This document shows positions 7,580-64,000 of a stretch of DNA of 64,000 nt, one piece after another. This DNA is from Parietichytrium sp. I65-24A (Eukaryota; Sar; Bigyra; Thraustochytrida; Thraustochytriidae). Location of the stretch: positions 51,908 through 115,907 of the forward strand of contig BLSF01000093.1 in NCBI GenBank assembly GCA_012862575.1, read 5' to 3'. The position numbers and the translations under genes were made by a program. The notes under the pieces are model-generated. The model did no database searches and was not told the DNA's origin. It saw only the letters and a list, made by a program, of their open reading frames with translations. Within the stretch, counting starts at the first letter, position 1, and every line of letters starts with the position of its first letter.

Positions 7580-8428
7580 AGTCGCACTCTGGCACGCCGA
7601 CAAGGGCGTATCGACCGCGAAGTGTCCACCAAACACCCAGTACCATTCCACCTTTCCACCATTCCACTTGATCCATCGAAGAAGGACGCTCTTTAACATA
7701 ACACCAACATGAAAATAGCTTTACATTATTTGACATCCTCTCCTGCTTTCTCGCTTTTTGTTTTGACATCGTCATCGAGTATCATACTTTTCGAGAGGAG
7801 CTGGCTTGGCTTGCTTCGAAAGTAATGCTGAGCGGCCATCGATCAACGATCAATCGACGATCGGCGATTAATATAAGCAACAGTCGACGATCGACGATCA
7901 ACGATAAACAACCATTAATCAAAGTTCAATCGACGATGCCTCCTCGTCGCAAGGAGAATAAAAGGTTAAGAAAGAGAACCAGAGAACCAGAGCACCGCAA
8001 TGTTCAGTCTCTTAAAGACTCAAAAATTTGAAGCGGGAGTCTTTGTGGGCCCAAAACATGCTCAATAACAGCGAGTGCACTGCAAAAGCCGCGCAAACTG
8101 GTCATGAATATGACGACTAGCTCAAGAGGCGAAAGTTTTGATTGACAGTGAACGAATTGAGAACAAAAAGGAGTTGTGTTGAAAAAACACTACGTAGGTA
8201 CACTATTAATCATTTATGGTTATCCTTACGCCTCCACCTACAAAAGAACCAAAGAACCCTCTGCGGAACGCAATTTCAAATTTCAAATTCGAATTTTCGA
8301 AAATAAAGAAGGTAGGATCAGTAGGATCAGTTAGGACACCCTATAAAGCCTTGTACACAAACGCATACAGTGAACAAAACGAACATTCTCTGCGCAGTCA
8401 CGAAAAAGAAAGGAAAAGAGAGTGAAGC

Positions 8429-21431: not shown

Positions 21432-22724
21432 TTTTCTCCCACAGGTACGAAAGTGCGCCTATAACGAGGACACGATTGCGTACGCGGATGGGGGTATGGG
21501 GGTGCGCGGACCACTAAGAGTATCCCACGCGATACTCTAAAGGTAGGAAAGGTAGGTTACGAGATGTTGTGATGTATCAAGGTTTGAAACCTTTACATTC
21601 CACGCATCTCTCTTTTACTCTAGGGAGAGACTAGCGTATACGCTGAATGGAATTCTATCGTCAGGCGGTAGAACGCCGTAGAAGGTGGTGTGCGCTCCTC
21701 GTATGGGAGTAGTGGTTTTCTATGCGATGATAGGATACCATGGGCAGTCGGCTCCACAGCCTTCTCGCTAGTCTTTTGAGTAGCGTCGAAGAGCCGGCTA
21801 GCTAGCGGTAACCGCTCGCTATAACTCAGATAGCTAGCTAGCTCTAGCTAGCGCTATTTCTTTTGAAGGGTTATACTATAAGGCTTACTTGGAAAATCGA
21901 GATAATAATTTTGACTTTTCGCATACCTAGTTCTCTCTGTAAGTTTGATCCAAAGAGATCAGCTCGAGCTGTTAGCTAGCTAGTAGCGTTCTTTCATTTC
22001 TTCGACACTAACTAATAGTTGGTTCCCCACGCCCTAGCTAGTAGGAAAGAACCAAGAACCGAAGAAACCGAATTCAATTTCAGCACCGGAGAACTGGAGA
22101 ACTGGAGACCCCGAAATCAACCAGCTACTCCATTAAAGCACTACAATTCGACATATCGTCCAACAAACACTCCAACGCCTGCCAGGACCGCCGAGAACCG
22201 GAAAATCAGGAGCCCTCGCTATCATCGCAGAAGAACTAGAATATCAGGTTCCTCCGCGGAGAACCCACCCGAACCTTCCTACCGACCTCTAACCAACTGC
22301 TACTTCCAATGCCTGGATGCGGCCTCCGTCCGAACCGCACACCCCGGTTCCCTGGTTCCGGAGAGCGCACAGCCGTGCGCCGGAGAGGTGTCCGCGCCGA
22401 GGACCTTTTCCTTCAGGCGCCAGCAACCCTGCGCGCAAGCCTGGAACCCGGGGGCCTCCTCGACCAGCTCTCCGAGTCCCCGGTTCTCCGGTTCTCCGGT
22501 TCTCTGCTTCTCTGGAACCAGGCCCTCCGGTCTCCGCTACTCGTGCGTCGGCGCTCGAGTACAGAGTACTACACTTCGCAGTAGACCCGCTTAGTCGGAC
22601 TGAGGACTCAAAAGCACTCGGAAGAGAAGAGAGGAGGAGAGGAGAAGGCAGAAAGGATAAAAGAGCGATTGTGAATCGCAGAAGGTAAAAAAAAGGTGGG
22701 AGCCGAGTGGGATTGGAGGCGGAA
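21432..22724. other. Divergent intergenic region with TAGC palindromes
   Basis: It is the shared upstream region of a TTL gene (-) and the carrier gene (+). Around 21795-21990 it contains clusters of GCTAGCTAGC. Around 22480-22505 CCGGTTCT units repeat. A 191-codon frame at 22019-22594 is Pro/Ser/Arg-rich with no family pattern and is not called. Confidence 0.5.
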
Positions 22725-23713: not shown

Positions 23714-24413
23714 CTTGGAAATGTGCATCTCTTTTGACTGCTGCTGTCGCTGCTCCTAGACCTGAAAACACTATCACGAACCACCGCTCTCTTTTCATCT
23801 CCATACTATATGTTCTGGAACTCGGGAATACAACCCTGTGCTCTTGATATCCATCCTCCGTGCCCGTCACTTTTTCCAACTCCGGTCGCGCACAAACGTT
23901 TATTGAGCCAAAAACTCGGCCACCTGCAGCACATTCTTTTCACAACTCGCCTCTTCCACGAGCCCGGCGATCTGCGCATCCTTGTGCAATCGATGGTGTA
24001 ATTTCATTTCGTTTCATTCTCCCAACGACCTTGTAGTGTGCATTTCAATTCACAGTCTCCCAACGCCCTTCTGGTGCGATCGATGGTTGCATTTCATTTC
24101 GCATTCTCTCAACCAACTGGGAGACAGTTGCACTGACTGTGAATATCCTTCACAATTCAATTCCAACCAAAGAAAGAGCGCCCATCTCCTCATATCTCCT
24201 CATATCTCCTCCTTCACTGATGGCATGAATGAACAACAACCTTCTCAAAACGCTCTTGTTGAAAACAAACATCATCAAACAGACTTCTACCGACTACCTA
24301 TGCATTCCTACCATGTAACTGCGCGAGGACACCTTGCGTACGGTAATATTCACCGCGTCTGAGCAAAGAAGGCCAACAGCACGTCGCGCGCACACTAATG
24401 AACGTCATCCGCG
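23714..24413. other. Intergenic, no gene seen
   Basis: The stretch lies between the carrier and the large TTL gene. Related segments repeat around 23990-24130 (CGATGGTG, ATTTCATTTCG, CTCCCAACG). A GACTGTGAATA motif sits near 24136. Confidence 0.55.
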
Positions 24414-27400
24414 ATGCACAATGAGGACCAGGCGGGTCTCGGCCAAAGCGCTGCGTCCGAGGGATCTTACTTTTCTACTCAGCCAGGGTCCTCGGCGGGG
24501 ACAGATGCGGACGGGACTGGCCCGCGCGAGAGACAGCACAGCGCGGACACGCATGGGACAGAGGACACTGGCGTTTCGGGGACGGGCCAAAGTGTGAGCA
24601 GCTGTACGGGGGAAAGCCAAAGTCAGAGTGAAGAATACGATGAAGACGACGATGGGAATGACGACGGCAAGAGCGACGAAGAGGATGAGGATGAGGATGA
24701 GGACCAAGAAGAACAAGCGGGATTCGACATAGAAGATGGGCTTGACGTCGGCAGCACTGGCAGGGAGGTCGAGCATGGCGATGACGGAAATTCGTCAGAA
24801 AGCGAGGAGACTGGGAGCTCGGATTCCTCAAGTTCAAATTCTAGAAGAATGCGCCAATCGTCGTTTAGCACTCAGAGCTCCTCACAGCAGCATACGTGCA
24901 CGGGCGATGACGATGACGATTACGATAACGATTACGATTACGAAGATGGAGGGGAAGAAGAGTCTTCCAGGAGCGACGGGGATCTTGAGAAACAAGAAGG
25001 CCAATCTGAAAGCGGGTCAGGTGAAGATGAAGATGAAGATGAAATGGACGAGAATGACGCAACTAGTGAGGGGACGGGCTGCGAACCTGAGCATGACTTG
25101 GAGGCCCAAGTTCTCAAGCAACGGCGACGCGCAAAAAGCGAGCGGTCAAGCTCTGGGTCAGAGGATAGCGGATCGTCGTCAGCACATTCCATGTCTCCTT
25201 CAACGTCGTCCAATAGCGGGCCAGAGGATCTTGAGGCGGGGCTGGACAGAGCGCGAAAGAAAAAAAAGAAAAAGTCGGGCCAGGGTTCGCGCTTGGTTGT
25301 CTCATGGAAAGTGCGGTTGGCCGCTGTATGCTTTCTTGCAGCCATGACGTATGTTGCAATGATGCAATTGTGGCAAATGGCCAGAACTGTAGCATCGTCT
25401 GCCAGCGCGATATTACCAACAGGGATTTCCGTGCCGCAACTCTGGAGCGGGCGTTCCTCCAATTCCGTCTCGGGGTCCGGGGGAACGCACACCAATATAG
25501 GTTTTGACGTAGATCCAATCCTGATGCGTGAGCAGCCGCTCACTTGGAGCGAGTTCAAACCTTTGCTGCGAAGGCAAAACGCGTCTCTCACAACAACGGG
25601 ACACAGCATGGATGTGAAGATCTCCAAAAAGGTGACCAAACCTGTGCACAAACAGAAGAGACGATCTTTTGGCTGTCTCAGGGAAGGGTGCCGCGGTCTG
25701 GAAATCGAAGAAATGCTTGACCGCGGGTGGAGCATGAGGTTCAAGACTTGTCTTGTAAACGGTACACGTGACTATAAAGACATGAACTATCACCTCACAG
25801 TCCTTATGGCCGATACAACCAATCTGAATCACCTAGAATCGGTGAGACCCGACCTATTCAAGAAGATTCACGACTCATATGAGGGGTCCACGTATATAAC
25901 CGCTTTTGATGGAGGCGACGCTATCGGAGGTAACAAAGGCCAGCAGCTGCGGACCAAAATGAAATATGTAAAGTCCTTCGGGTGCAAGTATAATGATCTC
26001 GGTATCCAGCCAGCCCAGTATCGCTTATACGTAAAGGAAGAGTGCGATGATTTGGTGTCTTTGGATGCACAGCAGGCCGGGCTCACATGGTTACTTAAAC
26101 CGGAGGCAGGTTCGCAGGGCCAGGGCATCACCTTTCACGCTGACGCTGATGATATCAAAAGCAAGCGCCCAGAGTTCTTTCCTTGTGAGACCCGGCACAA
26201 AATGCCAGCCACACAAAGAGCTTTGGTTCAGCAATACATCGAAAAGCCGTTGCTGTTGCACAAGTGTAAATTTGATGTGCGCGTGTACATGCTGATTGGG
26301 TCTTCCAACCCATGGCTCGTGTTTTATCACGAGGGATACTTGCGGCGGTCGCTCTGGCCGTACACTCCAAACTCCAAAGATCGCAAAGTCTACCTCACCA
26401 ACACCCACTTTCAGAGTATGAAGTCGGGCTTCAAGCTCTCTGACCATATTTGGCCATTCGATTCGTTTCAGGAATATCTCAGCGAGCAGGGACTCACAGG
26501 GGCTCACTATATCGACTCCATCTTGAACCCTTACATTCGTGCCATGGTTCTTCTTATCTTTAAAAGCGCCGCGCACAAGATCAAGCCCAGAGCGGGATCC
26601 TACCAGATCATGGGGTTGGACTTTATGATCGACGAGGATTTTCACGTTCATTTCATCGAGGCGAACGGATACCCAGGATTCACGTGGAGCATCAACTTTG
26701 ACTCGCGGAAAATGGTGGAGCATCTCATGGATCTGGTCCAAGAGCTTCATGAATACCCAGAACCATTCAATCTGCTCAGGCCTGGGGACCGCTTTGGCAA
26801 TTGGCAGCTCGCTTACTCAGAGATCATGGAGCGCAAAACGGCGTCTCGGTATCACCCTTGTGAAGAATTCGGAGATAACATTGCCCTGTCTGCCGGGCTC
26901 AAACACGCGAACCAAGCCTTCTCAAAAATCAGCTCGGCGATCAAACAGGCCTCGACGAAAGCCTATGACAACACGGAGAAATTTGTGCAAAGGATCCCGG
27001 GCTGGAGATACCTCGGTGGCGAAAAGGGTGATACGTATCACACTCGCAGTTCGTTCGCTAAACAGTTCAAGTGCTCCGCAGCTCTGTCCGGAATAGAGCC
27101 GCGCACGTACAGACTCTACGATCCGAAGGAATGCGCAGCTCTCTTCTCCGGGTCCGTAGACAGGAATCTGGTGCTCAAGCAGGTCGAGGGTGCAGGAGGC
27201 GGCGACGGTCTCGTGTTTTTTCGCTCCGTCTCGGACCTTAAAAAGGACAGCGGGGTTTATCCTTGTAGGGACGACGCACCGCAGTCATGGATTGCGCAAG
27301 AGATGGTCTCAAATGGCATACAGCTCGATGTTGGAAAACTTCGCAATGCAGAACTTATCAAAGTCGACTTTGGCCCGGCCGAAAGTGCCAAAGAGCGCCG

Positions 27401-28563
27401 CGCAAACGCGAAGGCACTTGAGGATGGCCTTCAGCTGGTCAATCCCAGCAACGCCATCTACCAGCAGCATGCCGATCTTTCGGCACGCGGCGAGACCATC
27501 CGCGTCTTGTACCACATTCGCACATTTCTGCTTGTCCCCAGCATCTCTCCAATGATGGCGTTCTATCATGATGGTTACCTCCGATCTGTTCGCCCGGCAC
27601 TCATCGACGATGATCATTATGGGTTCAAACTAGGAGAGCATGTCTTGACATTCGAAAACTTTCAGTATTACCTGGCTTCACAACAGATGACGAGCCCTCA
27701 CTACGTCAGTTCTGTACTTCGGCCTTACTTGAACAAGGTAACGGAATATGTTTTCCACAGCTCATTAGGCGATGTGAACAGTGCGATTGCAAAAGCATTC
27801 GGAAACGAAACCAACAATCGCCACCACCACCAAATGTTTGCGTTTAATTTTATTTTGGACACTGCTTACAAAGTCCATCTGGTTGGTGTTAGCGGAGACC
27901 CGACGCATCGAGACTTCTTTCCGCTGGATTATATGCGTGAGGTGTCCGTGGAGGTCCACGATCAATTGAAAAAGATGCAGAAGCTCCGTCGCGAACTCGT
28001 TCTGGAGCTCGGATCCGCACCAGCAGCTTTTGCTCGCATGCGTTACGGCGATGCTTATGGTTCGTATTCTTTGCTATACAGTGAAATGGAGGCTCAGCGG
28101 TACAATTCGGAGTACGACCCGTGCCTGTGGTTTTCAAGCTCTCCGTTCATTCCAAAATCGCAGATCAAAAAGGTTACTGATCTCCAAAACTTTGCGGAAA
28201 AGCAGAGGGCTTCGCACAAGCGGGAGATGGACAAGTACGTCAAGAAGAGATGGGCAAGCTGCAAGTTGCGCTCCTCTCGAGAAGCCAAAGAAGATTGCAT
28301 TCGAGGGGAAATTTTGTACAGGTACATGATTTACGTTCAGAAAGAGCACATTCCGTAAGTTGCCCGCGACCACATTTGGCAAAGCCATTTGGCCCCCGAC
28401 TCTTGCTAACCAGAGACTCGATCTGATAACCCTATTTCCTTTTCTCATTCGCAGGTACGACAAAGATTTTGTGAACAATGAAATCTCAGAGCTCATGGGA
28501 AACCACTCCCCGCAACTCCCGCAATGGAAGATCGAAGCTGCCAAGTCTCGCGCCAATTCCTGA
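24414..28563 (+). CDS. Membrane-anchored double TTL-domain protein (two exons)
   Basis: Exons 24414-28354 and 28455-28563 give 1349 residues; the junction reads HIPYDKDFVNN. Residues 1-290 are an extremely acidic, Ser-rich disordered segment ending in a run of six lysines. A single hydrophobic helix follows at about 300-322, predicting type II topology. TTL domain 1 (about 440-790) has the full hallmarks: WLLKPEAGSQGQG near 558, CKFDVRVYML, VYLTNTHFQ, and the metal ligands in HFIEANGYPGF near 745. TTL domain 2 (about 860-1260) keeps LKQVEGAGGGDG near 919 but has HLVGVSGDP where domain 1 has the Glu and Asn, so it is probably catalytically dead. Substrate unknown. It lies beyond the carrier gene from the other TTL gene. 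Confidence 0.87.
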
Positions 28564-29119: not shown

Positions 29120-32100
29120 ATGATGCGCGGAGCGGCCGTGCGGCATGGGGTTAGGTTAGGGGTCTGGCGACGGAGCGCGCTGGCGGAGAGGCGGATAGGG
29201 ACGGCGAGAGCGCTGGGAACCGCGGGGGACGCGAGAGGGCACCCGTGCCATGGTAAGTAGCTCGGGGAGAGGTGTGGCGGAGGATGCTGGGGTTCGCTTG
29301 GAGGTGCTTTGATTGGCTTGGCTTGAGTTTGCTTTGCTTTGCTTTAATTTGCTTTGCTTTGCTTTAATTTGCTTTAATTTGCTTTGCTTTGCTTTGCTTT
29401 GCTTTGCTTTGCTTTGCTTCAATTTGCTTTAATTTGCTTTGCTTTGCTTTGCTTTAATTTGCTTTGCTTTGCTTTGCTTTGCTTCAATTTGCTTTGCTTT
29501 AATTTGCTTTAATTTGCTTTAATTTGCTTTGCTTTGCTTTGCTTGGCTTGGCTTTGCTTTAATTTGCTTGGCTTTGCTTTGCTTTAATTTGCTTTGCTTT
29601 GCCTTGCTTTGGTGCAGACTCGTTTTGAGCGCCATTTCGATGCCACTTGGACGCCGATTTGAATGCCATTTGAACGCCATTTTGATGCCTGGTGTTTGAC
29701 CCGCCTGCGCTTTCATTGCGCTTTTGGTTGGCTCGGGCTCAATTCGGTGAGGTTGGGTCACGCTTATGCGTTGTTTCGGCTCAATTTGGTGTGGCTTTGG
29801 GTCGGCTGGGTGGAGCGTGAGATGGAATTGGATGGGTGCATGCTTGGGTCAAGCAAATTCTAACCTGAGAACTGAGTTTTGTTGATGCGTGGGGGCTGAA
29901 ATGGCTGCGCTGGCGGAACGATCACGTGGCGATAGGGAGGGAGATGCTCGCTAGCTTTGACCCTGCCGTTGTGGAATCCGGCGTTGGTGCGTGGTGGGAT
30001 GCGGAACACGCAGAACTTGCGCTGCAGCAGCGCAAGTCTAAAAGCGCGGCGCAGCGATTCTCGATGGTGATTCCTCCGCCGAATGTGACTGGCCAGTTGC
30101 ACATTGGTCACGCACTTACAGTTGCCATTCAGGACTGCGTGGTGCGCTTTAGGCGCATGCACGGTGATGATGTGATTTGGGTCCCGGGATCGGATCATGC
30201 AGGCATTGCCACACAGACGGTCGTGGAGCGCAGGCTTGCAAAGGAGAACGGGCTCACCCGCCATGATCTTGGGCGGGAAAAGTTCGTGGATCGAGTGTGG
30301 AAGTGGGTGCACGAATACGATGCGCGAATTTTTGAACAGCTGCATCGTCTCGGCGCATCGCTGGACTGGAACAGAAAAGTGTTCACGCTGGACGCTTTGC
30401 GTAGCGAGGGGGTTTTAAAAGCCTTCGTCACGCTGCACGAGCGAGGTTTGGTTTATCGCGACGTCCGTCTCGTGAATTGGTGCCCTCACCTGCGCACCGT
30501 TATTTCAGATCTAGAAACTGATGTTGAAGAAGTCTCGGGACCTAAAATGATCAAGATCCCTGGCAGAGCAAAGCCAGTGGAAGTTGGAGTCATGCACGAT
30601 TTCGCTTACGAAATGGAAGGAGGGGGTGAGATTGTTGTGAGCACCACGAGAATAGAGACCATGCTTGGGGACGTTGCAATTGCGGTACACCCAGAAGATA
30701 CAAAGTACAAAGATCTGCACGGCAAAGCTGCTGTTCACCCCTTTATTCCGGGTCGCCTTATCCCTATCGTAACAGACTCCGAGCTGGTCGATCCAACGCT
30801 TGGCTCTGGCGCGGTGAAAATCACGCCAGCCCATGATGCCAACGATTTCGCATGTGGTCAAAGGCATGGCTTGGAGGTGATCAACATCTTTGATGATGTC
30901 GGGCGCCTTAACGAGAATGTTGGCTCAGAGTGGTGCGGTATGGATCGCTTCGACGCGAGAGATCTGGTTGTCAAAAAGCTCAGTGAACGGGGACTCTACC
31001 GTGGCAAGCGACCTAATGAGATGCGACTCGCTCGTTGCTCGCGTTCAGGAGATATTATCGAGCCAATGCTCAAACCTCAATGGTTCGTCAGGTGCGGTGA
31101 TATGGCGCAGCGTGCGTTAAATTTTGTGGAGGAGGGTCAACTCCGAATTCAGCCACCTGTGCACAAAAAAACATGGCGACATTTCCTCGGCAATATTCAG
31201 GACTGGTGCATCTCACGACAATTATGGTGGGGTCATCGGATACCGGCGTATCGTGTGATTGACAGCGAACCAAGGATGACCAATGCCACAGACCCAGTCG
31301 ATGAGGAGCGGTGGGTGGTGGCTCTGACCGAGCAGGAGGCGAACGAGAGAGCCGTCAAAGAACTCGGACTCGAACCAGGCTCGTTTCGGCTCGAGCAAGA
31401 CGAGGATGTGTTGGACACATGGTTCTCCTCAGGGCTATTTCCGCTGACAGCGCTGAACTGGCCGTCAGACAACTTTGACAAGCAATATTACCCCATCTCT
31501 CTCATGGAGACGGGGTCCGATATTCTGTTTTTCTGGGTGGCAAGAATGGTCATGATGTGCTCAGAAATGCACGACCCGACCAAACCACCCTTTCGGGACG
31601 TCTATCTCCATCCGATCATCAGAGACAGACAGGGGCGCAAGATGTCCAAGTCCCTCGGAAACGTCATTGACCCGCTCCACGTCATTGATGGCGTCCCACT
31701 CGAGACGCTGGTGGCAGATCTCGAAAAGGGCAATTTAGACGCGAGCGAAATAAAACGCGCCTCAGCAAACTTACGGGCGGAGTATCCGGAAGGGATCCCT
31801 GCGTGCGGAACAGACGCGTTGCGCCTCGGTCTGGCCTCATACATTAGCAGCAATACTGACACTATCAACATGGATATTGCTCGCGTTTTGCACTGGCGGT
31901 TATTTGGCAACAAGCTCTGGAATGCCGTACGATTTGCATTGATTCAAAAGAAGCCTGACGGTAGCGCGAACCTCCGCGAGGCCAAACACCGCGACCTACC
32001 GTTGGAGTCTCGCTGGATTCTGAGCAGTCTCGTGAACTGCGTTCAAGCGTGTGAGGAGGGCTACTCCTCAATGGAACTGGGTAGAGTCACGCAAGCGCTG

Positions 32101-53550: not shown

Positions 53551-56500
53551 CTAAGGAAGCATTTGGAGCGCTCCTTTACCAAATTTTTGTACGTTTACAT
53601 TCTCGGCATGACTTTCCATTGCCGACTTGACCACACTCCTGATGTCAAGCTCTGTGAGTTCTGGGATGTGGTGCCGCGACAGTAAGAGATAGCCTAGTAA
53701 CTCGCATCCCCTTTCTTGAAGTGTTTCTCTTTGAGTATGCGCCTTCATCGCCGCTACGACCTCAAGACCAGCGCCGAGCTCCATTAGCTCGTTGACAAGC
53801 GTGGTATCTCTTACCAGGGTGAGTATCGCTCCGCACGCTTTTTCTTGCACTTCTACGTTGGCTGGACACCCCCGCATGGCAGCGACAATCCTGTGTCCGG
53901 CATTGAGCCCCATTGCAGCCTTTTTGCTCGCAAACAAGTTCGCAGTTAAGCTGGAAAGTGCTCCGCATGCTGCTTGCTGGACACTTGGGTTGTCCGTATG
54001 CATCGTCATAGCGGCGATGACCCGCTTGGTGGCCATCAGGTTATGTGATGAAAATGCCTCGGCACAGGCGAGGGTTTCGATGGCTGCGCATGCGTAGTTT
54101 TGTACTTCTGGGTCGCTTTCGAAGTTCGTCATGGCCAAGATGATTTTCTCTCCAGCTTCGGAACAGAGAAAATTTGAGCGGATCTCCTCCAGGGCAGCGA
54201 AAATTGCGAGCGCGGAGCAGGCATACAGCTGCACTCTTCCATTGTTCTCATGCGCTTCCATGGCCCGGACGATCCGCTCAACGCTCCCGCAATTGTATAG
54301 CTTGAGTTTGTTCTCAAGGTTCCCGTATGCTAGTCTTCCAAGCGCTGCACATCCGTATCGCTGCACATCTGCGCAACTCCTGAAATCAAGCATGGCACTC
54401 AAGATGCGCGAACCAACACCGTCGTCCATAAGCTCTTTTTGGAGCTCCGAATTGTCACGAGTTAGGTTTCCGATTGCTGCGAAGGCGCACTGTTGTACTT
54501 GTGCATCGACCTTGAAGTGGTCCATTGTCCTCACTATGTGCTGACCAACCTTGAGTGTCGTCAGCTTGGCCACCGCCTCTTTCTTTAGGGCTTTCATGAT
54601 GGCCAGGCCTTTTACCTGAATTGCAGCACTCTCCTGTTGCATTTGCATCAAAAACAATATGCATTCAGGGCTTGAGTTTGGTTCAAGTAGTCCTTGGCAA
54701 TACTCAACGTCACAGAGCTGATTTGGGATCAAGCTACGAAAACTCCAGTCCTGAGCACAAGCCACGACATCAATGTCGCCGTGAACGAGAATCCTGGCAG
54801 CCTCAAACTCTTTCGCATCATGATGCGACGAACTTTCACCGCGCACTTCCAAAAGCGCGTCCTTAGCAGAGTAAACTGCCTCTATTAACAACTCCAAAGC
54901 TGACCTCTTCTGTGCAAAGGTTCCAATCTCCTCGAGCTGAACACAGCTCTTTGCAGCTTCAAGCAAGACGGCACGAAACTGGGGCTTTGCAGCAGTCCAG
55001 TACAGGACGGACACGCCTGCTACTCTCTTCGAGAGCTTGTCCAATTCGGGCAGATCAGCTTGATCCGCGCTGCTCATCGAGGACTCAGTAAGACTCGAAA
55101 TCTTTGTCTTTAGTGAATTCCGAAGAGCCTCTCTGTGCTGCTTCAGAAAGGCATTTGCCGAATTGAGAAGAGCGTTTCTTAGATTGGAAAACCTCCCAAG
55201 TTTCAGAGGAAGCCTTGAGGTTTCCAAGACAACTTCCAAAAGACTCGAGCGGACAATGGCCCATGCAGAGTCGATCGCCTGGTCAAGGTGTCCGTCGAGC
55301 TCGTCGATAATTTGCCATGCCATATGCAGACGCTCTCCGATCGGAAGCTCATTCATTCGATGGTGTTTTGGAAATATGTCAAGCCTGATATTCTCCTGAA
55401 ACTTGTCCTCCCACGTACTCGTAGGCACACTCAGCAGCTTGTCAAGCTTGGTACCCACTTCGTGCAGAACGGCTTCTCCATTCACATGAGTTGGTCGTGT
55501 TCCCAGGTTCCAGATCTGTGTGAGTAGAGCTTGAAGCTCCACCTGTATCCGTTTGAGCTCCTGGTTCACCCAGGTTTCACGCATATACCGAGAGAGCATC
55601 TCGTTACAAGATCCGAGTAGTGCGTTCAAGCCGTGCCGACTTTCGTCGTACTCTACGCCATGCTTTTGGCATTTCTCGCGCAGGACCTCACGCTCGACGA
55701 TCACAGAACGGGCGAGCGAGCTTCTATCCTCAACTTCGCCACTTGACTCCGAGTCGCGATTCGCAAGGGGGATGACAGACACGATATTTATGTCTGACGG
55801 GAGCTCACTTCCTGTAATGGCAATGCGATCAGCCAAATTGAAGTCTCCGCCGGCGTCTACCATCGTCAAGGCCACTACCACTGGGTTCCCGGCCTCGAGG
55901 AGGAGTGGCCAGATGCAATTCGATCGTAGTCGCCGAATTGTACCAGATATTACCGCCAACACCAAGGTGTGAGGTACTTTGAGCATCTTTCGTGTCAACT
56001 CTTCAGTCTCGGATTTGGTAGATGCCGGCGAACTGACAATTCCTGGCAGATCCACAAGGTCGATTGTGGGGACTGATGGCGCGCAGATCTCAACCTGCAC
56101 CTCATGGTCAGTAATTACACGTGAGCCATCATCGTCAGGGTGGTGCTGCTTCATGAAGTCCAGGATGACTCTGGACACCCGTGTGGCGAGCGGCTCGTTC
56201 ATTCCAACCCCGGTCTCGTAGAAGTAGGGTTCGGACACGTTTTCAATGGTGTCCGTGGTTGTGTTCTTGATCCGGAGAACGACTCTGTTCTGATGTTTCT
56301 TGCATCGAAGCATGAGCCGGATCGGCATCCGCGTGCAGAACGAAGAGTCACATGGGAACACATGTTCCATGGCGAAGCGGTTGAGAGTGCTTGACTTGCC
56401 TTCACTCTCACTCCCGCAGACAACAATTTGCGGGAGCTGAAGGTTAAAGTCGCCACGAACTTTGTAGACCGCGTTCAAAAGGCGGCCATAAGCAGCGTCA

Positions 56501-56793
56501 TTGCTGAAAAGAAGTTCAGCCAGCCCGCCTTGACCCTTTTCCCCGACAACAAAACTACCGCGACCAGCCGCCTGCTCGATGGCGGCCTTGTACCCTTCTC
56601 GGCGGCCATGAGTGCGGATGGTCTCGTAGGCTTCGCAAATGCGTTGACGATCCTTCTCATTGGACGCGCGCGTTTCGGCCACGTTGAACGCGCTGGTGAC
56701 AACGGCGTCGTCTAGCTGTGCATCGTTGCCATCCAACTGGAGGATGTCGAACGCGGTGTACTCGACGCAAATACGCTCTTGCTCCTCTCTCAT
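53551..56793 (-). CDS. Dynamin-type GTPase with armadillo repeats and J-like N-terminus
   Basis: 1080 residues in one exon. Residues about 12-70 resemble a DnaJ J domain (YTAFDILQLDG to ICEAYETIRTHGRREGYKAA) but lack the HPD motif needed to stimulate Hsp70. The dynamin-family GTPase follows: G1 GSESEGKSS at 127-135, G2 TRMPIRL at 154, G3 DLVDLPG at 245-251, and G4 TMVD at 310-313 where dynamins have TKxD. A helical stalk-like segment reaches about 700. From about 740 to the end there are seven or more armadillo repeats of about 42 residues (VQQYACAAI-like units, for example VQNYACAAIETLA). Membrane remodelling or scission is inferred; the armadillo part would bind a partner. I know no family with this domain order. 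Confidence 0.88.
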   Translation of the reverse strand: MREEQERICVEYTAFDILQLDGNDAQLDDAVVTSAFNVAETRASNEKDRQRICEAYETIRTHGRREGYKAAIEQAAGRGSFVVGEKGQGGLAELLFSNDAAYGRLLNAVYKVRGDFNLQLPQIVVCGSESEGKSSTLNRFAMEHVFPCDSSFCTRMPIRLMLRCKKHQNRVVLRIKNTTTDTIENVSEPYFYETGVGMNEPLATRVSRVILDFMKQHHPDDDGSRVITDHEVQVEICAPSVPTIDLVDLPGIVSSPASTKSETEELTRKMLKVPHTLVLAVISGTIRRLRSNCIWPLLLEAGNPVVVALTMVDAGGDFNLADRIAITGSELPSDINIVSVIPLANRDSESSGEVEDRSSLARSVIVEREVLREKCQKHGVEYDESRHGLNALLGSCNEMLSRYMRETWVNQELKRIQVELQALLTQIWNLGTRPTHVNGEAVLHEVGTKLDKLLSVPTSTWEDKFQENIRLDIFPKHHRMNELPIGERLHMAWQIIDELDGHLDQAIDSAWAIVRSSLLEVVLETSRLPLKLGRFSNLRNALLNSANAFLKQHREALRNSLKTKISSLTESSMSSADQADLPELDKLSKRVAGVSVLYWTAAKPQFRAVLLEAAKSCVQLEEIGTFAQKRSALELLIEAVYSAKDALLEVRGESSSHHDAKEFEAARILVHGDIDVVACAQDWSFRSLIPNQLCDVEYCQGLLEPNSSPECILFLMQMQQESAAIQVKGLAIMKALKKEAVAKLTTLKVGQHIVRTMDHFKVDAQVQQCAFAAIGNLTRDNSELQKELMDDGVGSRILSAMLDFRSCADVQRYGCAALGRLAYGNLENKLKLYNCGSVERIVRAMEAHENNGRVQLYACSALAIFAALEEIRSNFLCSEAGEKIILAMTNFESDPEVQNYACAAIETLACAEAFSSHNLMATKRVIAAMTMHTDNPSVQQAACGALSSLTANLFASKKAAMGLNAGHRIVAAMRGCPANVEVQEKACGAILTLVRDTTLVNELMELGAGLEVVAAMKAHTQRETLQERGCELLGYLLLSRHHIPELTELDIRSVVKSAMESHAENVNVQKFGKGALQMLP

Positions 56794-57459
56794 CTCGTGT
56801 CGGTGTGGAAATCGGGGACTGACAATCAGTATTCACTGTCAGTCACCCGCTTCGTCAGCTCGTTGCAAGAGAGAACATCATAGAACATCACACTATGCAA
56901 AAGCAAACTCTTTCCTTGAGTACCCGAGAGTCCCGGAGCACGTGGGAACACACACGGAATCAACGATCGTCCCCGTAGGACTTTCAACGTCATCATAACA
57001 TCAGTATGATAACATCCTCATAACCGGCAGCCAAAGTGCCATAGTACTGCGCTGCCCCTGAAATAGCATCTCCGTCCTCAGCGTCCTGGGCCTTTCAGGA
57101 CGTGTCATATCGTGTCATGAGAAAGTCAGTGATCGTGGTCACCGCTCCATCTGCTCCAATGTCCGACAGCGACATCGTTTATGCAAACACGAAGCTACAC
57201 TCACCACTGTCTGTCTATACACGTATACAATTATACTGTTTCTCCAATTTGGACTCGGCTTTCGCGATCTCTCGCGCGGTAAAGTATGCTTGTACCAGTT
57301 CTGGTAGCCACGTCACTAGTGCCGACACACAGCTACGGTAAAGTTCTGGTAATGGGTACTAGTATGAGTAGATGTGCGTACGTCCTATGCAGTCCGGCTC
57401 TGGTAGCCTTCGCATAGAGTTTACGGATAACTTCTATAGCTAGCTAGCTAGCAGAGCTG
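56794..57459. other. Intergenic, no gene seen
   Basis: A CACTGTCAGTC motif lies next to GACTGACAATCAGT at about 56818-56848, directly upstream of the dynamin-armadillo gene. A TAGCTAGCTAGCTAGC run lies near 57437. Confidence 0.55.
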
Positions 57460-58061
57460 CTATGTAAGAAGGGGGCATAAAAATGTAGAAAGCCAGTTCG
57501 AAATAGTATTTTCGCTTTTGACCTCGAGCTTCCTATAGTCTTTCACAACCTTTGTCGGAAGCGTCGCCCAAATATCTTCGATTAGTTCCGGTTTGACACC
57601 AACATGCTCGTTGTTTTTGTCGGCGCCTGATTCCGAGCCTGGAGTGTCCGGTTCCAAGTCGGAGTTACCAGCCCTTTCTTGATTCTGGTTTGGCACACTC
57701 AAGAATGCGCCTCCAGTGTCCGTCAACGCCGTTGGCACGGGAATCTCAGCAGTTTCCGACACTCTCTTCAGCGACTCCATGTTTAAATATCGTCCCAGCT
57801 GGTTCAGCGTTAGTGTTGGATTGTTATGGAGAACCATTTCGAGAAGCTCGACATGAAACTGCTCTTGTTTCGATGGTCTCCCGCCTGCTTTCCCCCCCAT
57901 CATCAGAATTGAAATCAGATCCCACCGAATTCTTCCCCATTGCGGAAGCGATATAAAAGGTTCTCAGCAGTCTTCACTGGTATATGAAGCATCGCCGCCA
58001 CCTTAAGTCTCTCCTTTCTCCCACCACGGACTTCTGCGTCAATGATCATGTTCTTCTCCAT
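57460..58061 (-). pseudogene. Broken Tc1/mariner-IS630-like transposase N-terminus
   Basis: Two minus-strand frames look like the two helix-turn-helix halves of such a transposase. The first (58061-57915) reads MEKNMIIDAEVRGGRKERL, then VAAMLHIPVKTAENLLYRFR, and stops. The second, in another phase (57903-57460), reads GGRPSKQEQFHVELL, then NNPTLTLNQLGRYL. After that the sequence turns low-complexity and the DDE catalytic domain is not visible. The frame change and missing catalytic part suggest a relic. An unrecognised host gene with two exons is the alternative. It abuts the left end of the tandem array. Confidence 0.4.
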
Positions 58062-58255
58062 TTTCGTGTACGACCTCCTGCGCGCTTTTCGTTTCTTCCT
58101 CTTAGACCTTCTGTCTTCTGTCGGGAAACAATTTTAGCTTTTCCCAGAGGCCGTGCCATGCTGGGCATGTCAGTTGATCGCAAGGCCCACTGGCAGCGCG
58201 CAAGTGCAAGGTCGATGAGTGGAAAACGGCCCAATTGGAAATTCGGAAGTCGAAT

Positions 58256-59513
58256 ATTCACAAGATCCGGATTTGAGTCAAACAAAGTTCTATACTACTT
58301 GAGGTTGATTACAAAAGGTCGTTTGCCTTCGAATCCAGGAAGATGGACGAGTTGAAAGCATCGTCAGGCAGGTGACGAACAGCAGCAGAAGAAGTTACTG
58401 CTTGTCCTTCTTGCCCTTCTTGCCGCCCTTCTTGGCGTCCTTCTTGGACGCTGGTGCCTTTGCTGGCGCTGGGGCAGCAGCTGGGGTGTCAGTCTTTTGG
58501 GTGGTGTCCTTGCGTGGCATTTTGGTTGAGTTGTGTTGTTTAGTTGCTGGTTGCTTTTGATCGCTTGGTGTGTTTGTGGTCTGCTGTGGTTGAGGACTTT
58601 GATCGATTCAATACAAATGCATGAGAGTCTCAAAGCCTTCATTGCAAATCTATGAGAATGTTGAGAGCTTGTCTCTTTCTGCATGCTTGTGCAATTGAGC
58701 TCGTTCTAGAATAAATGAGTTAGATCTTGAGGCTGGTCGACGGGAAAGACGACTTTGTCTGGCAAAAAATAACTTCACCATGCAGTGTTTGTGTGGCAAA
58801 CTTGGCTCCCTCGCATGGATCTGAGCTGATGCCGGAAAGAGCCATTCGTCGACTGCAGTTTCAAACAATATTGTCAAGGACAGAATGAGAAAGCTGCACC
58901 TGGAATTTTTTTTCTGGACGAAAACTTCACAACGCGAGAGCAAGCTTGGGTCTCTCGCATGAATCTGAGCTGATGCCGGAAAGAGCCATTTTGTCGACTG
59001 CAATGTCAGTTAAACAATTTTGTCAAGGACAGAATGGCACGCTGCTTTCTTCGCGACAGAGAAAGATGAACTTCGGAATCCTTTGCTTTCCTTTGCCCCC
59101 CTAATGTTCACTCCACTGGAACTGACTATTCTCTGTAATCGTGGAAAACTGTGTAAGTCATGCAGCACCGAAATTTGTAGGTCAAGCGTTAAGTGAGCCA
59201 TAAGACTCAGACTTTCAGTTGCCAAGGAAAAGTTTTTTCACGGCACAACTTCAGCTGAGCCCACACCTGATAACCGAAAGCTGTGGGACTTGTGGATCTT
59301 TTGGAAATGTGATGTGCAATGCATGTGTACTTTTGCCTCCGAGAGAGGGCTGGCGACATCTCGGTGTTGGTCATGAAGGCAATGTTCATGTGGTCAGCTC
59401 TTCCCAGTTCATCAAAATGCAGTCGAAATTCATTGCAAAAACGTTGGTGCATGATTTGATTGAAGAGGTCTGTTTCGCAATTGAAATTAAACTTGAAGAA
59501 AGAAAGTATATAT
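58256..59513. repeat. Tandem repeat unit 1 (1258 bp)
   Basis: It begins at ATTCACAAGATCCGG and contains micro-ORF copy 1. It carries two copies of an internal sub-repeat marked by GAGCTGATGCCGGAAAGAGC (near 58825 and 58970), which makes it the longest unit. Confidence 0.95.
58395..58520 (-). CDS. 41-residue Lys/Ala/Pro-rich microprotein, copy 1
   Basis: The product begins MPRKDTTQKTDTP, has an Ala/Pro middle (AAAPAPAKAPAS), and ends in a Lys/Gly tail (KKGGKKGKKDKQ). It has 12 Lys and 1 Arg against 4 Asp, a net charge of about +9, with no hydrophobic segment, signal or Cys. Nearly all lysine codons are AAG. It resembles the basic N-terminal tail of ribosomal protein eS25 and also histone-H1-like tails; neither match is proven. 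Nothing like the rest of eS25 follows downstream. Copy 1 has AAG at codon 34 and GCT at codon 14. Its 3' side abuts unique DNA with the transposase relic. Confidence 0.65.
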   Translation of the reverse strand: MPRKDTTQKTDTPAAAPAPAKAPASKKDAKKGGKKGKKDKQ

Positions 59514-60725
59514 ATTCACAAGATCCGGATTTGAGTCAAACAAAGTTCTATACTACTCGGGGTTGATTACAAAAGGTCGTTCGCCTTCGAATCCAGGAAG
59601 ATGGACGAGTTGAAAGCATCGTCAGGCAGGTGACGAACAGCAGCAGAAGAAGTTACTGCTTGTCCTTCTTGCCCTTTTTGCCGCCCTTCTTGGCGTCCTT
59701 CTTGGACGCTGGTGCCTTTGCTGGCGCTGGGGCAGCGGCTGGGGTGTCAGTCTTTTGGGTGGTGTCCTTGCGTGGCATTTTGATTGAGTTGTGTTGTTTA
59801 GTTGCTGGTTGCTTTTGATCGCTTGGTGTGTTTGTGGTCTGCTGAAGTTAAGGACTTTGATCGATTCAATACAAATGCACGAGAGTCTTGGAGCTTCCAT
59901 TGCGAATCTATGAGAATGCTGCCAGCTGAAGTCATTATGCATCCTTGTTCCGGATTGCACAAGGGCAAATGTAGATCTTGAGGCTGGTCGACGGGAAAGA
60001 CGACTTTTTCTGGCAAAAAATAACTTCACCATGCAGTGTTTGTGTGGCAAACTTGGCTCCCTCGTACGGATGTGAGCTGATGCCGCAAAGAAGAGCCATT
60101 TTTCCGACTGCAATTTCATCTAGCTTTGTCAAGGACCTGATGAGAAAGCTGCACCTGGAATTCTTTTCCTGGACGAAAACTTCGCAGCGCCCCAGAATTG
60201 GATTGCAAGCTTGGCTTCCTCGCATGGATCTGAGCTGATGCCGGAAAGAGCCATTTTGTCGACTGCAGTTTCAAACAACTTTGTCAAGGACAGAATGAGA
60301 AAGATGAACTCGGAATTCTGCCTCCTTCGCTATTCTCTGTAATTGTGGAAACTGTGCAACTCATGCAGCACCGAAATTTATAGGTCAAGCGTTAAGAGAG
60401 CCTTAAGACTCTGAGAATCAAGACTCTCAGTTGCCAAGGAAAAGTTTTTTCACGGGACAACTTCAGCCCACACCTGATAACCGAAAGCTGTGGGACTTGT
60501 GGATCTTTTGGATAAGTGATGTACAATACATGTGTACTTTTGCCTCCGAGAGAGAACTGGCGACGTAATGGTGTTGGTCATGAAGGCAATGTTTATGTGG
60601 TCAGCTCTTCCCAGTGCATCAAATTGCAGTCGAGATGATTTATTGCAAAAGCGTTGGTGCATGATTTGATTGAAGAGGTCTGTCTGTTTCGCAATTGAAA
60701 TTCAACTTGAAGAAAGAAAGTATGT
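59514..60725. repeat. Tandem repeat unit 2 (1212 bp)
   Basis: Same order as unit 1, again with two internal sub-repeats (GAGCTGATGCCG near 60075 and 60233). A small deletion and several point changes distinguish it. Confidence 0.95.
59653..59778 (-). CDS. 41-residue microprotein, copy 2
   Basis: The peptide is identical to copy 1. It differs by two silent changes, AAA at codon 34 and GCC at codon 14. Just upstream of the ATG it has CAATCAAAATG where the other copies have CAACCAAAATG. Confidence 0.65.
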   Translation of the reverse strand: MPRKDTTQKTDTPAAAPAPAKAPASKKDAKKGGKKGKKDKQ

Positions 60726-61772
60726 ATTCACAAGATCCGGATTTGAGTCAAACAAAGTTCTATACTACTCGGGGTTGATTACAAAAGGTCGTTCGCCTTC
60801 GAATCCAGGAAGATGGACGAGTTGAAAGCATCGTCAGGCAGGTGACGAACAGCAGCAGAAGAAGTTACTGCTTGTCCTTCTTGCCCTTCTTGCCGCCCTT
60901 CTTGGCGTCCTTCTTGGACGCTGGTGCCTTTGCTGGCGCTGGGGCAGCAGCTGGGGTGTCAGTCTTTTGGGTGGTGTCCTTGCGTGGCATTTTGGTTGAG
61001 TTGTGTTGTTTAGTTGCTGGTTGCTTTTGATCGCTTGGTGTGTTTGTGGTCTGCTGTAGTTAAGGACTTTGATCGATTCAATACAAATGCACGAGAGTCT
61101 TGGAGCTTCCATTGCGAATCTATGAGAATGCTGCCAGCTGAAGTCATTATGCATCCTTGTTCCGGATTGCACAAGGGCAAATGTAGATCTTGATGCTGGT
61201 CGAGGAAAAAGGGCGACTTTTCTGGACGAAAACTTCACAGCGTCAGAATTGGATTGCAAGCTTGGCTCCCTCGCATGGATCTGAGCTGATGCCAGAAAGA
61301 GCCATTTCGTCGACTGCAGTTTCAAACAATATTGTCAAGGACAGAATGAGGAGGATGAACTTCGAATTCTGCTTTCCTTTGCTATTCCCTGTAATTGTGG
61401 AAACTGCGCAAGTCCTGCACCGACGTTTATATGCCAAGCAGTAAGTGAGCCTTAGGACTCCGAGAATCAAGACTTTCAGTTGCCAAGGAAAAGTTTTTTC
61501 ACGTGACAACTTCAGCCCACACCTGATAACCGAAAGCTGTGGGACTTGTGGATCTTTTGGAAATGTGATGTACAATACATGTGTACTTTCGCCTCCGAGA
61601 GAGGGCTGGCGACGTCTCGGTGTTGGTCATGAAGGCAATGTTCATGTGGTCAGCTCTTCCCAGTGCATCAAAATGCAGTCGAAAATTCATTGCAAAAACG
61701 TTGGTGCATGATTCGATTGAAGAGGTCTGTCTGTTTCGCAATTGAAATTAAACTTGAAGAAAGAAAGTATGT
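60726..61772. repeat. Tandem repeat unit 3 (1047 bp)
   Basis: The shortest complete unit. It has one internal sub-repeat (near 61283) instead of two, which accounts for most of the length difference from units 1 and 2. Confidence 0.95.
60865..60990 (-). CDS. 41-residue microprotein, copy 3
   Basis: The nucleotide sequence is the same as copy 1 over all 126 bases (AAG at codon 34, GCT at codon 14). Its upstream region is nearest to that of copy 2, so coding and flanking histories do not fully agree. Confidence 0.65.
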   Translation of the reverse strand: MPRKDTTQKTDTPAAAPAPAKAPASKKDAKKGGKKGKKDKQ

Positions 61773-62840
61773 ATTCACAAGATCCGGATTTGAGTCAAAC
61801 AAAGTTCTATACTACTTGAGGTTGATTACAAAAGGTCGTTCGCCTCCAAATCCAGGAAGATGGACGAGTTGAAAGCATCGTCAGGCAGGCGACGAACAGC
61901 AGCAGAAGAAGTTACTGCTTGTCCTTCTTGCCCTTTTTGCCGCCCTTCTTGGCGTCCTTCTTGGACGCTGGTGCCTTTGCTGGCGCTGGGGCAGCAGCTG
62001 GGGTGTCAGTCTTTTGGGTGGTGTCCTTGCGTGGCATTTTGGTTGAGTTGTGTTGGTTTGTAGCTGGTTGCTTTTGATCGCTTGGTGTGTTTGTGGTCTG
62101 CTGTGGTTGAGGACTTTGATCGATGCAATACAAATGCACGAGAGTCTTGGAGCTTTCATTGCAAATCTATGAGAATGCTGCCAGCTAAGTCATTATGCAT
62201 CATTGTTCCGGATTGGATAAGGGCAGATGTAGATCTTGAGGCTGGTCGAGGAAAAAGGGCGACTTTTCCTGGACGAAAACTTCACAGCGCCAGAAATGGA
62301 TTGCAAGCTTGGCTCCCTCGCATGGATCTGAGCTGATGCCGGAAAGAGCCATTTTATCAACTGCAATTTCAAACACTTGACAGAATGAGGAGGATGAACT
62401 TGGAATTCTGGTTTCCTTTGCTATTCTCTGTAATCGTGGAAACTGTGGAAGTCATACAGCACCGAATGTTATAGGTCAAGCGTTAAGTGAGCCTTAAGAC
62501 TCCGAGAATCAAGACTTTCAGTCGCCAAGGAAAGTTTTTTCATGGGATAACTTCAGCCTGAGCCCACACCTGATAACCGAAAGCTGTGGGACTTGTGGAT
62601 CTTTTGGAAATGTGATGCACACTTGTGGATCTTTGGAAAGGTGGTGTACAATACATGTGTACTTTCGCCTCCGAGAGAGGGCTGGCGACATCTCGGTGTT
62701 GGTCAAGAAGGCAATGCTCATGTGGTCAGCTCTTCGCAGTCGAGATGATTCATTCCAAAAACGTTGGTGCATGACTTAATTGAACAGGTCTGCCTGTTTC
62801 GCAATTGAAATGAAATTAAACTTGAAGAAAGAAAGTGTAT
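61773..62840. repeat. Tandem repeat unit 4 (1068 bp)
   Basis: One internal sub-repeat (near 62328). A short local duplication around 62600-62640 (ACTTGTGGATCTTT twice) adds about 26 bases. Confidence 0.95.
61912..62037 (-). CDS. 41-residue microprotein, copy 4
   Basis: Identical peptide, with AAA at codon 34 and GCT at codon 14. Its 5' leader shares GTGTTGGTTTGTAGC with copy 5, whereas copies 1-3 have GTGTTGTTTAGTTGC. In this copy the frame stays open 34 codons upstream of the ATG. Confidence 0.65.
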   Translation of the reverse strand: MPRKDTTQKTDTPAAAPAPAKAPASKKDAKKGGKKGKKDKQ

Positions 62841-63632
62841 ATTCACAAGATCCGGATTTGAGTCAAACAAAGTTCTATACTACTTGGGGTTGATTACAAA
62901 AGGTCGTTCGCCTCCAAATTCAGGAAGATGGACGAGTTGAGCGCATCGTCAGGCAGGTGACGAACAGCAGCAGAAGAAGTTACTGCTTGTCCTTCTTGCC
63001 CTTTTTGCCGCCCTTCTTGGCGTCCTTCTTGGACGCTGGTGCCTTTGCTGGCGCTGGGGCAGCAGCTGGGGTGTCAGTCTTTTGGGTGGTGTCCTTGCGT
63101 GGCATTTTGGTTGAGTTGTGTTGGTTTGTAGCTGGTTGCTTTTGATCGCTTGGTGTGTTTGCGGTCTGCTGTAGTTGAGGACTTTGATCGATTCAATACA
63201 AATGCACGAGAGTCTTGGAGTTTCCATTGCGAGTCTATGAGAATGCTGCCAGCTGAAGTCATTATGCATGCTTGTTTCAGAACTCGAAAGGGCAAATGTA
63301 GATCTTGCGGCTGGTCGAGGAAAAAGGCGACTTTTCTTGGTAATTCACTTGGCTGTGTAGTGTTCGGATCGAAATCTTGGCTCCCTCGCATGAACTTGTG
63401 CTGATTCCACAAAGAGCCATTTTGTAGACTGCAGTTTCACAGACACACTTTCAAGAGCAGAGTAAGCAGAGTGAGCAGAGTGGCACGTCGTTTCCCTCGC
63501 GCCGGGAAAAGCTGAGCTTGGAATGATCAATCGTTTCCTTTCCAGTTCGTTTGCTATCGAAGGACAATGAGCGCAGCAGTATTGAAAAACATCACCCAAT
63601 TTTATAGGCTAAGCGTTAGGTGAGCCATAAGA
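62841..63632. repeat. Tandem repeat unit 5 (partial, about 790 bp)
   Basis: It starts like the others but loses similarity after GAGCCATAAGA near 63632, so the last few hundred bases of the unit are missing. Its right half resembles unit 1 (GGCACGCTG-like and TAGGCTAAGCG) more than its neighbour, unit 4. Confidence 0.9.
62980..63105 (-). CDS. 41-residue microprotein, copy 5
   Basis: Identical peptide and the same silent state as copy 4 (AAA at codon 34, GCT at codon 14). It is the first copy in the direction of transcription. It has the partial upstream region, so it may be regulated differently. Confidence 0.65.
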   Translation of the reverse strand: MPRKDTTQKTDTPAAAPAPAKAPASKKDAKKGGKKGKKDKQ

Positions 63633-64000
63633 TACCAAGAAGAAGGCATGAGACCGGGCCCGGGTCACATGAGCTATGGTGGGAGGGAGATGTGGAGGGA
63701 GGCTCAAGGGGTTTGAGGTGGTTCGGGATGGGTAGGACGGGTGGGCACAGGAGGGTTCCAGAGCTCGAAACGAGGTCGATGAGACATTGAGACCTGCAAA
63801 AGCTGGGTATATCAAATGTTGATCAGAACTTGGCTTCATTCTCTATCCTCAATCATCCGTCACCATCTACCACCACTAACACCTACCTACCCAGGCGCTC
63901 GCCTATCCATCTGGCCTAACCTAGCCTAGCTAGCTAGCAGTACGAATGGGGAAGTAACCCGTAGCCACTGCTAGACGCGCCGATGGCCAATTAGCACGAG
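63633..64000. other. Right edge, no gene seen
   Basis: Unique DNA beyond the array. It ends with a CCTAGCCTAGCTAGCTAGC run near 63918-63938 like those in other spacers here. Confidence 0.55.

What the first reader, a model, noticed from the sequence alone, without database searches (positions are those of the whole stretch)
58256..63632. Five-copy tandem array of an invariant 41-residue basic microprotein
Five direct repeats each carry a minus-strand frame of 42 codons. Across the five copies only two nucleotides vary in the frame and both are silent, so the peptide is identical. In contrast, the roughly 900-1100 flanking bases per unit differ by many substitutions and indels. This is what purifying selection on a real, probably strongly expressed small protein would look like. 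The peptide is Lys/Ala/Pro-rich with a net charge of about +9. It could be a nucleic-acid-binding tail protein, an amplified N-terminal fragment of ribosomal protein eS25, or a new family.
Basis: partly seen in the sequence, partly recalled or inferred. Interest (0 to 1): 0.88.

Follow-up and report, generated by a model that had tools for sequence, protein, structure and literature searches.

The report
Five tandem copies of small-protein gene
A stretch of eukaryotic DNA carries five back-to-back copies of what is probably one tiny gene for an identical 41-residue, lysine-rich protein with no relatives found here; it may be an abundant DNA- or RNA-binding protein, an interesting but not extraordinary case of a multi-copy small gene.

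Summary
Five head-to-tail repeats (about 58,254-63,640, minus strand) carry the same 42-codon frame; 2 of 126 bases vary, both silently. The contrast with the flanks is weaker than claimed: 110 bases before and 139 after the frame are also conserved (19 variable of 249); divergence is high only farther upstream. The pertinent test still favours a protein: 0 changes at about 92 amino-acid-changing sites versus 19/249 in near flanks (p = 0.003), while silent sites vary like the flanks. Codon usage agrees. A second, overlapping 92-codon frame is also open in all five units, but 13 of its 19 changes alter residues, about what no constraint would give. Conflicting site patterns suggest exchange between copies. 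No relative was found in Pfam, NCBIfam, PHROGs, PDB, or by exact DNA patterns; no eukaryote genomes could be searched. The eS25 idea is not supported. Best reading: a dosage-amplified gene for a Lys/Ala/Pro-rich, probably disordered nucleic-acid-binding protein, working like the single-domain H1 proteins of trypanosomes; membership is not shown.

The parts
58254..59512 (-). unit 1 (downstream-most copy), approximate limits; contains two copies of the 40-base upstream motif
59513..60724 (-). unit 2, approximate limits; has an extra upstream stretch of about 150 bases and two copies of the 40-base motif
60725..61771 (-). unit 3, approximate limits
61772..62839 (-). unit 4, approximate limits
62840..63640 (-). 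unit 5 (upstream-most copy), more diverged upstream; its upstream part ends at about 63,640
   Evidence: end judged by eye on the alignment
58395..58520 (-). 41-residue frame with stop, copy 1
59653..59778 (-). 41-residue frame with stop, copy 2
60865..60990 (-). 41-residue frame with stop, copy 3
61912..62037 (-). 41-residue frame with stop, copy 4
62980..63105 (-). 41-residue frame with stop, copy 5
60991..61100 (-). conserved 5' leader-like stretch of 110 bases, A/C-rich just before the ATG (copy 3; a matching stretch lies in each unit)
60726..60864 (-). conserved 3' stretch of 139 bases after the stop (copy 3; a matching stretch lies in each unit)

Best explanation
Each repeat is a complete small gene (upstream region, A/C-rich leader, 41-codon frame, trailer) transcribed on the minus strand. 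Unequal exchange multiplied it to five copies, which raises output of one abundant small protein. Amino-acid changes are removed by selection, and exchange between copies further homogenises them. The protein is probably disordered: a Thr/Pro/Ala-rich front and a lysine-rich tail that neutralises DNA or RNA backbone charge, much like a linker-histone tail or an HMGN protein. Shown: the array, the invariant peptide, fewer changes at amino-acid sites than in near flanks. Inferred: transcription, abundance, disorder, nucleic-acid binding, nuclear location.
For: Five identical peptides; 2 of 126 bases vary, both silently. 0 of about 92 nonsynonymous sites vary against 19 of 249 near-flank sites (p = 0.0028), while 2 of about 31 silent sites vary, like the flanks (p = 1.0). 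The frame is the slowest 126-base window of the aligned unit: 2 variable; the best window outside it has 9 with five units, 6 with units 1-4, 5 with units 2-4. Codon log-odds +0.219 per codon in this frame; -0.177 and -0.060 in the other two frames of the strand, -0.194 to +0.018 on the other strand. In all five copies this ATG is the first in-frame ATG after an in-frame stop, and no ATG in any frame lies within 100 bases upstream. Composition: 12 Lys, 8 Ala, 5 Pro of 41; 13 basic and 4 acidic residues. T. brucei H1 proteins are single-domain, rich in Lys, Ala and Pro, from five genes in arrays (PMC3486875, passages only).
Against: Only two changes fall in the frame, so the statistics are thin, and the limit at -110 was set after seeing the alignment; the whole frame against near flanks gives p = 0.016. 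An ATG at -122 in all five units opens an overlapping 92-codon frame that is also intact five times; if transcripts begin before it, it would compete with the small frame. 14 of 45 pairs of informative sites are incompatible with one tree, so gene conversion or repeated mutation may explain part of the invariance. No homologue, transcript or peptide evidence. With 4 Asp the peptide is more acidic than typical linker-histone tails (recalled).
Confidence: 0.47

Rival explanations
1. A real small-protein gene in several copies, but the product does something other than bind nucleic acids (for example a ribosome-associated or cytosolic charged peptide). The array mechanism is as in the best explanation.
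For: The coding evidence is independent of function. No domain was found in the libraries searched.
Against: Charge +9 in 41 residues with a lysine-rich tail and no hydrophobic stretch favours nucleic-acid or ribosome contact (sequence); this is inference only.
Confidence: 0.28
2. The conserved block is chiefly a non-coding RNA gene, or a recently homogenised satellite-like repeat, and the frame is incidental.
For: The near flanks are also conserved (19 variable of 249), the site patterns conflict, as exchange would cause (14 of 45 pairs), and two overlapping frames stay open.
Against: No Rfam match up to E = 5 in 57,000-64,000; unit 3's block folds little better than shuffles (z = -1.13, 16 of 100 shuffles at least as good); 0 of 95 predicted pairs have a compensatory change (the copies vary too little for this to weigh much); variation in the small frame is confined to silent sites.
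Confidence: 0.12
3. The overlapping +1 frame, 92 codons from an ATG at -122 to a stop 28 bases after that of the small frame (Arg-rich, basic), is the real or a second product (dual coding).
For: It starts with ATG and is intact at 92 residues in all five units; it is longer than the small frame.
Against: Of its 19 variable sites 13 change the residue; site counts (about 206 of 276 nonsynonymous) predict about 14 without constraint. Both variable sites of the small frame are silent there and residue-changing here. Codon score over the shared part is -0.177 per codon against +0.219.
Confidence: 0.06
4. The frame is an amplified first exon or N-terminal fragment of ribosomal protein eS25.
For: The starts look alike (MPRKD here, MPPKD in human eS25) and both have Lys-rich stretches; local score 50 with human eS25.
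Against: 268 of 2000 shuffles of the peptide score as well. Human eS25 matches 63 distinct PDB sequences at E up to 0.001 (60 shown); the peptide found no eS25 chain at E up to 10. No eS25 match in 10 of the 30 minus-strand pieces of at least 40 codons listed between 57,000 and 61,000; the other 20 were not scanned.
Confidence: 0.04
5. A longer protein is made by splicing or frameshifting from this frame into the 3' conserved stretch, which is open in the third frame (reads ...VRHLPDDAFNSSIFLDSKANDLL).
For: That frame is open in all five units and has a weakly positive codon score (+0.094).
Against: Of the seven variable sites it has in the 3' stretch five change the residue, so it shows no protein constraint; the direct in-frame continuation after the stop meets a new stop in unit 5.
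Confidence: 0.03

Closest known systems
Single-domain linker histones H1 of kinetoplastids (T. brucei), seen as passages of PMC3486875
   Same: Lys/Ala/Pro-rich protein without globular domain, several genes in arrays
   Different: here 41 residues, four Asp, Thr-rich front; no H1 tails were compared with the peptide; the source organism is unknown; no chromatin data
HMGN proteins (recalled)
   Same: small, disordered, Lys/Ala/Pro-rich with some acidic residues, start with MP and basic residues
   Different: the conserved nucleosome-binding core of HMGN is absent by eye; no Pfam match
Ribosomal protein eS25
   Same: MPxKD start and Lys-rich N-terminal tail of the human protein
   Different: no Pfam match, similarity not above shuffles
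Tandem multi-copy gene arrays under concerted evolution, such as histone or rRNA gene arrays (recalled)
   Same: head-to-tail copies, slow gene part, faster spacers, signs of exchange
   Different: only five copies seen and a product of unknown family

Membership tests
Ribosomal protein eS25 | eS25 core domain (Pfam profile match) | tested here: not met
   no Pfam match of the peptide at E up to 10; no eS25 match in 10 of 30 listed minus-strand pieces nearby
Ribosomal protein eS25 | N-terminal similarity above composition | tested here: not met
   268 of 2000 shuffles score at least as high against human eS25; other eS25 sequences were not aligned
Single-domain H1 (kinetoplastid type) | short, Lys/Ala/Pro-rich, no globular domain | tested here: met
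   12 Lys, 8 Ala, 5 Pro of 41; no Pfam domain
Single-domain H1 (kinetoplastid type) | sequence relationship to known H1 tails | not tested
   no H1 tail set was compared; the PDB search gave only myosin light chain and coatomer at E 7.4-7.6
Single-domain H1 (kinetoplastid type) | binds chromatin and compacts it | not testable with these tools
   needs experiment
HMGN | conserved nucleosome-binding core | tested here: not met
   no Pfam match at E up to 10; core absent by eye (core recalled)
Multi-copy protein gene under purifying selection | amino-acid sites slower than silent sites and flanks | tested here: met
   against near flanks: 0 of about 92 versus 19 of 249, p = 0.0028; silent 2 of about 31, like the flanks, p = 1.0. 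Amino-acid versus silent sites directly was not tested; two changes are too few
Multi-copy protein gene under purifying selection | transcribed and translated | not testable with these tools
   no RNA or protein data

The most novel reading that the evidence does not exclude
The peptide is the founding member of a lineage-specific family of tail-only chromatin or RNA proteins, made in bulk from a five-copy array: an independent invention of a single-domain linker-histone-like protein in an intron-poor protist. A bolder variant, less likely, is dual coding, with a second basic 92-residue product from the overlapping frame that is open in all five units.
Probability: 0.2. Interest if true: 0.6.

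Novelty: new member of a known kind. Interest (0 to 1): 0.38.

Why it matters
Genes this short are often missed by annotation. An array that keeps one 41-residue peptide fixed while its upstream spacers drift is a natural test of coding potential, and if the product packages DNA or RNA it would add a tail-only chromatin protein like that of kinetoplastids, perhaps of independent origin.

Tried and rejected
eS25 fragment: not supported. Structured RNA: no Rfam match up to E = 5, fold z = -1.13 for unit 3, no compensatory pairs among 95. tRNA or tmRNA: none found in the window. Alternative frames: a +1 frame of 92 codons from an ATG at -122 is open in all five units, and in units 2 and 3 it is part of stop-to-stop ORFs of 165 and 166 residues; set aside because 13 of its 19 changes alter residues, about the number expected without constraint, and its codon score is negative. 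The third frame into the 3' stretch is not constrained either (5 of 7 changes there alter residues). Relatives: degenerate patterns for the two ends of the peptide and one 3' pattern gave 0 matches in IMG/VR, and the C-terminal pattern 0 in the prokaryote genome contigs; such exact patterns find only very close relatives. No eukaryote genome collection was on hand, so absence of relatives says little. Organism: no genome is held for the window. Long uninterrupted ORFs for eukaryotic-type proteins (Sec1, TTL, TRAPPC10) show an intron-poor eukaryote; a thraustochytrid is my guess from recall, untested. Literature: 4 of 4 papers listed; 10 of 3,036; 10 of 14; 10 of 15; 0 papers; 8 of 2,139; nothing in the listed titles and abstract starts concerned this array, but most papers of two searches were not listed. 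Of PMC12258536 I saw passages only. Bacterial promoter scan is not informative for a eukaryote.

The p-values (0.064 for the 3' side, 0.105 for the 5' side, 0.060 pooled) become 0.0063 for the 5' side and 0.0136 pooled; the 3' value stands. In one search the upstream ATG and stop of unit 5 were printed 105 too far; one search gives -122 and -90. On checking I found that the 92-codon frame is open in all five units, which I had overlooked; I lowered the best explanation from 0.50 to 0.47, the first rival from 0.30 to 0.28 and the splicing rival from 0.04 to 0.03, and added the dual-coding rival at 0.06.
Full report
What is there. The minus strand carries five head-to-tail repeats between about 58,254 and 63,640, spaced 1258, 1212, 1047 and 1068 bases. 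Each has an identical 41-residue frame with its stop at 58395-58520, 59653-59778, 60865-60990, 61912-62037 and 62980-63105. The peptide has 12 Lys, 8 Ala, 5 Pro, 4 Asp, 4 Thr, 3 Gly, 2 Gln and one each of Met, Arg and Ser, net charge +9.

How the copies differ. In the frame 2 of 126 positions vary: one Ala codon in unit 2, and one Lys codon that separates units 1 and 3 from 2, 4 and 5; both are silent. Alignment shows three zones. The near flanks, 110 bases before the ATG and 139 after the stop, have 10 and 9 variable sites and no gaps. From -250 to -110, pairs differ by 12 to 44 of 139-140 compared bases, with an extra stretch of about 150 bases in unit 2. Beyond that, pairs among units 1-4 differ by 4-24 sites in zones of 141-202 compared bases, plus gaps, and unit 5 is more diverged. 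The conserved object is therefore a transcript-sized block of about 375 bases.

Is the frame special within the block? The whole frame against the 249 near-flank sites gives Fisher p = 0.016; the limit of 110 bases was set after seeing where divergence jumps. With other cuts: 3' side alone 0.064, nearest 75 bases of the 5' side alone 0.0063, both 0.0136 (which corrects an undercount). The more pertinent test separates site types: 0 changes at about 92 nonsynonymous sites against 19 of 249, p = 0.0028 (3' side alone 0.012, 5' side alone 0.0022), and 2 of about 31 silent sites, not different from the flanks (p = 1.0). With the flank rate taken as known, the chance of no change in 92 sites is 0.0007. 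No correction for several tests was made. The frame is the slowest window of its length: 2 variable; best window outside it 9 in five units, 6 in units 1-4, 5 in units 2-4.

Independent support for coding. A codon table from 13 long ORFs of the window (ORFs and one repeat arm, not verified genes) gives +0.219 per codon in this frame; the other two frames of the strand give -0.177 and -0.060, the opposite strand -0.113, +0.018 and -0.194. In all five units an in-frame stop lies 72-132 bases upstream with no in-frame ATG between, and no ATG in any frame lies within 100 bases before the start. The leader is A/C-rich and ends CAAAATG in all five, which suits a eukaryotic start (recalled).

A result against exclusivity. 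An ATG at -122 opens a frame of 92 codons in the +1 register that overlaps the small frame and is intact in all five units. Its product would be basic and Arg-rich. Of 19 variable sites 13 change its residues; its site counts (about 206 nonsynonymous of 276) predict about 14 without constraint. Its codon score over the shared part is negative. I therefore read it as an open but unselected frame, but dual coding is not excluded.

Homogenisation. Among 10 informative sites of the block, 14 of 45 pairs fail the four-gamete test. Exchange between copies or repeated mutation explains this; either way the identity of five copies is not five independent observations of constraint.

What it is not. 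Peptide: no match in Pfam, NCBIfam or PHROGs at E up to 10; in the PDB only myosin light chain and coatomer at E 7.4-7.6, which share Ala/Pro/Lys composition. Direct alignment to human eS25 scores 50, reached by 268 of 2000 shuffles. Ten stop-free minus-strand pieces, of 30 of at least 40 codons listed between 57,000 and 61,000, gave only two matches below the curated cut-offs (E 0.03 and 0.035), neither to eS25. No Rfam family matches 57,000-64,000 up to E = 5; folding of unit 3 is ordinary (z = -1.13).

How it probably works. The most economical account is a small gene multiplied for dosage. The product has no hydrophobic stretch and a lysine-rich tail, so I infer a disordered nucleic-acid-binding protein. 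A described parallel is H1 of Trypanosoma brucei: a single domain rich in Lys, Ala and Pro without the globular domain, from five genes in arrays (PMC3486875, passages seen). This is likeness in composition and gene arrangement, not proven kinship; no H1 tails were aligned to the peptide.

Limits. No genome is held for the window and the collections here contain prokaryotes, phages, plasmids and viruses, so relatives in eukaryotes could not be sought. The exact-pattern searches would see only close relatives. The copy number rests on one assembly. Expression is unknown.

Verdict. A moderately interesting new member of a known kind: a multi-copy gene for a small basic protein.

Noticed in passing
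58804-58843, 58948-58987, 60055-60094, 60213-60252, 61264-61303, 62311-62350, 63379-63418 (-): A 40-base motif with GGCTC/GAGCC ends occurs seven times upstream of the five frames (0-7 mismatches, twice in units 1 and 2) and nowhere else in the window at up to 12 mismatches; a candidate upstream regulatory element.
   Followed up: partly
-122 to +154 of each unit, for example 60837-61112 (-): An overlapping +1 frame of 92 codons, Arg-rich, starts with ATG and is intact in all five units; 13 of 19 variable sites change its residues. In units 2 and 3 it lies in stop-to-stop ORFs of 165 and 166 residues.
   Followed up: yes
5447-5864 and 7164-7581: Inverted repeat, 418 bases, 92% complementary; the right arm lies largely in an ORF with an HSP20 domain, suggesting a head-to-head HSP20 pair.
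   Followed up: no
57463-58133 (-): Two overlapping ORFs just downstream of the array (167 and 72 residues) with no Pfam match and one weak PDB match of the longer (trehalose-6-phosphate phosphatase, E = 0.86); by eye the longer resembles the start of a Tc1/IS630-like transposase, untested.
   Followed up: partly
53551-56832 (-): One uninterrupted ORF joins a dynamin-like GTPase domain with armadillo-type repeats.
   Followed up: no
18924-21458 (-) and 24402-28358 (+): Two tubulin-tyrosine-ligase-like genes with long low-complexity fronts.
   Followed up: no
29305-29611: Five-base tandem array of about 61 copies, consensus TGCTT.
   Followed up: no
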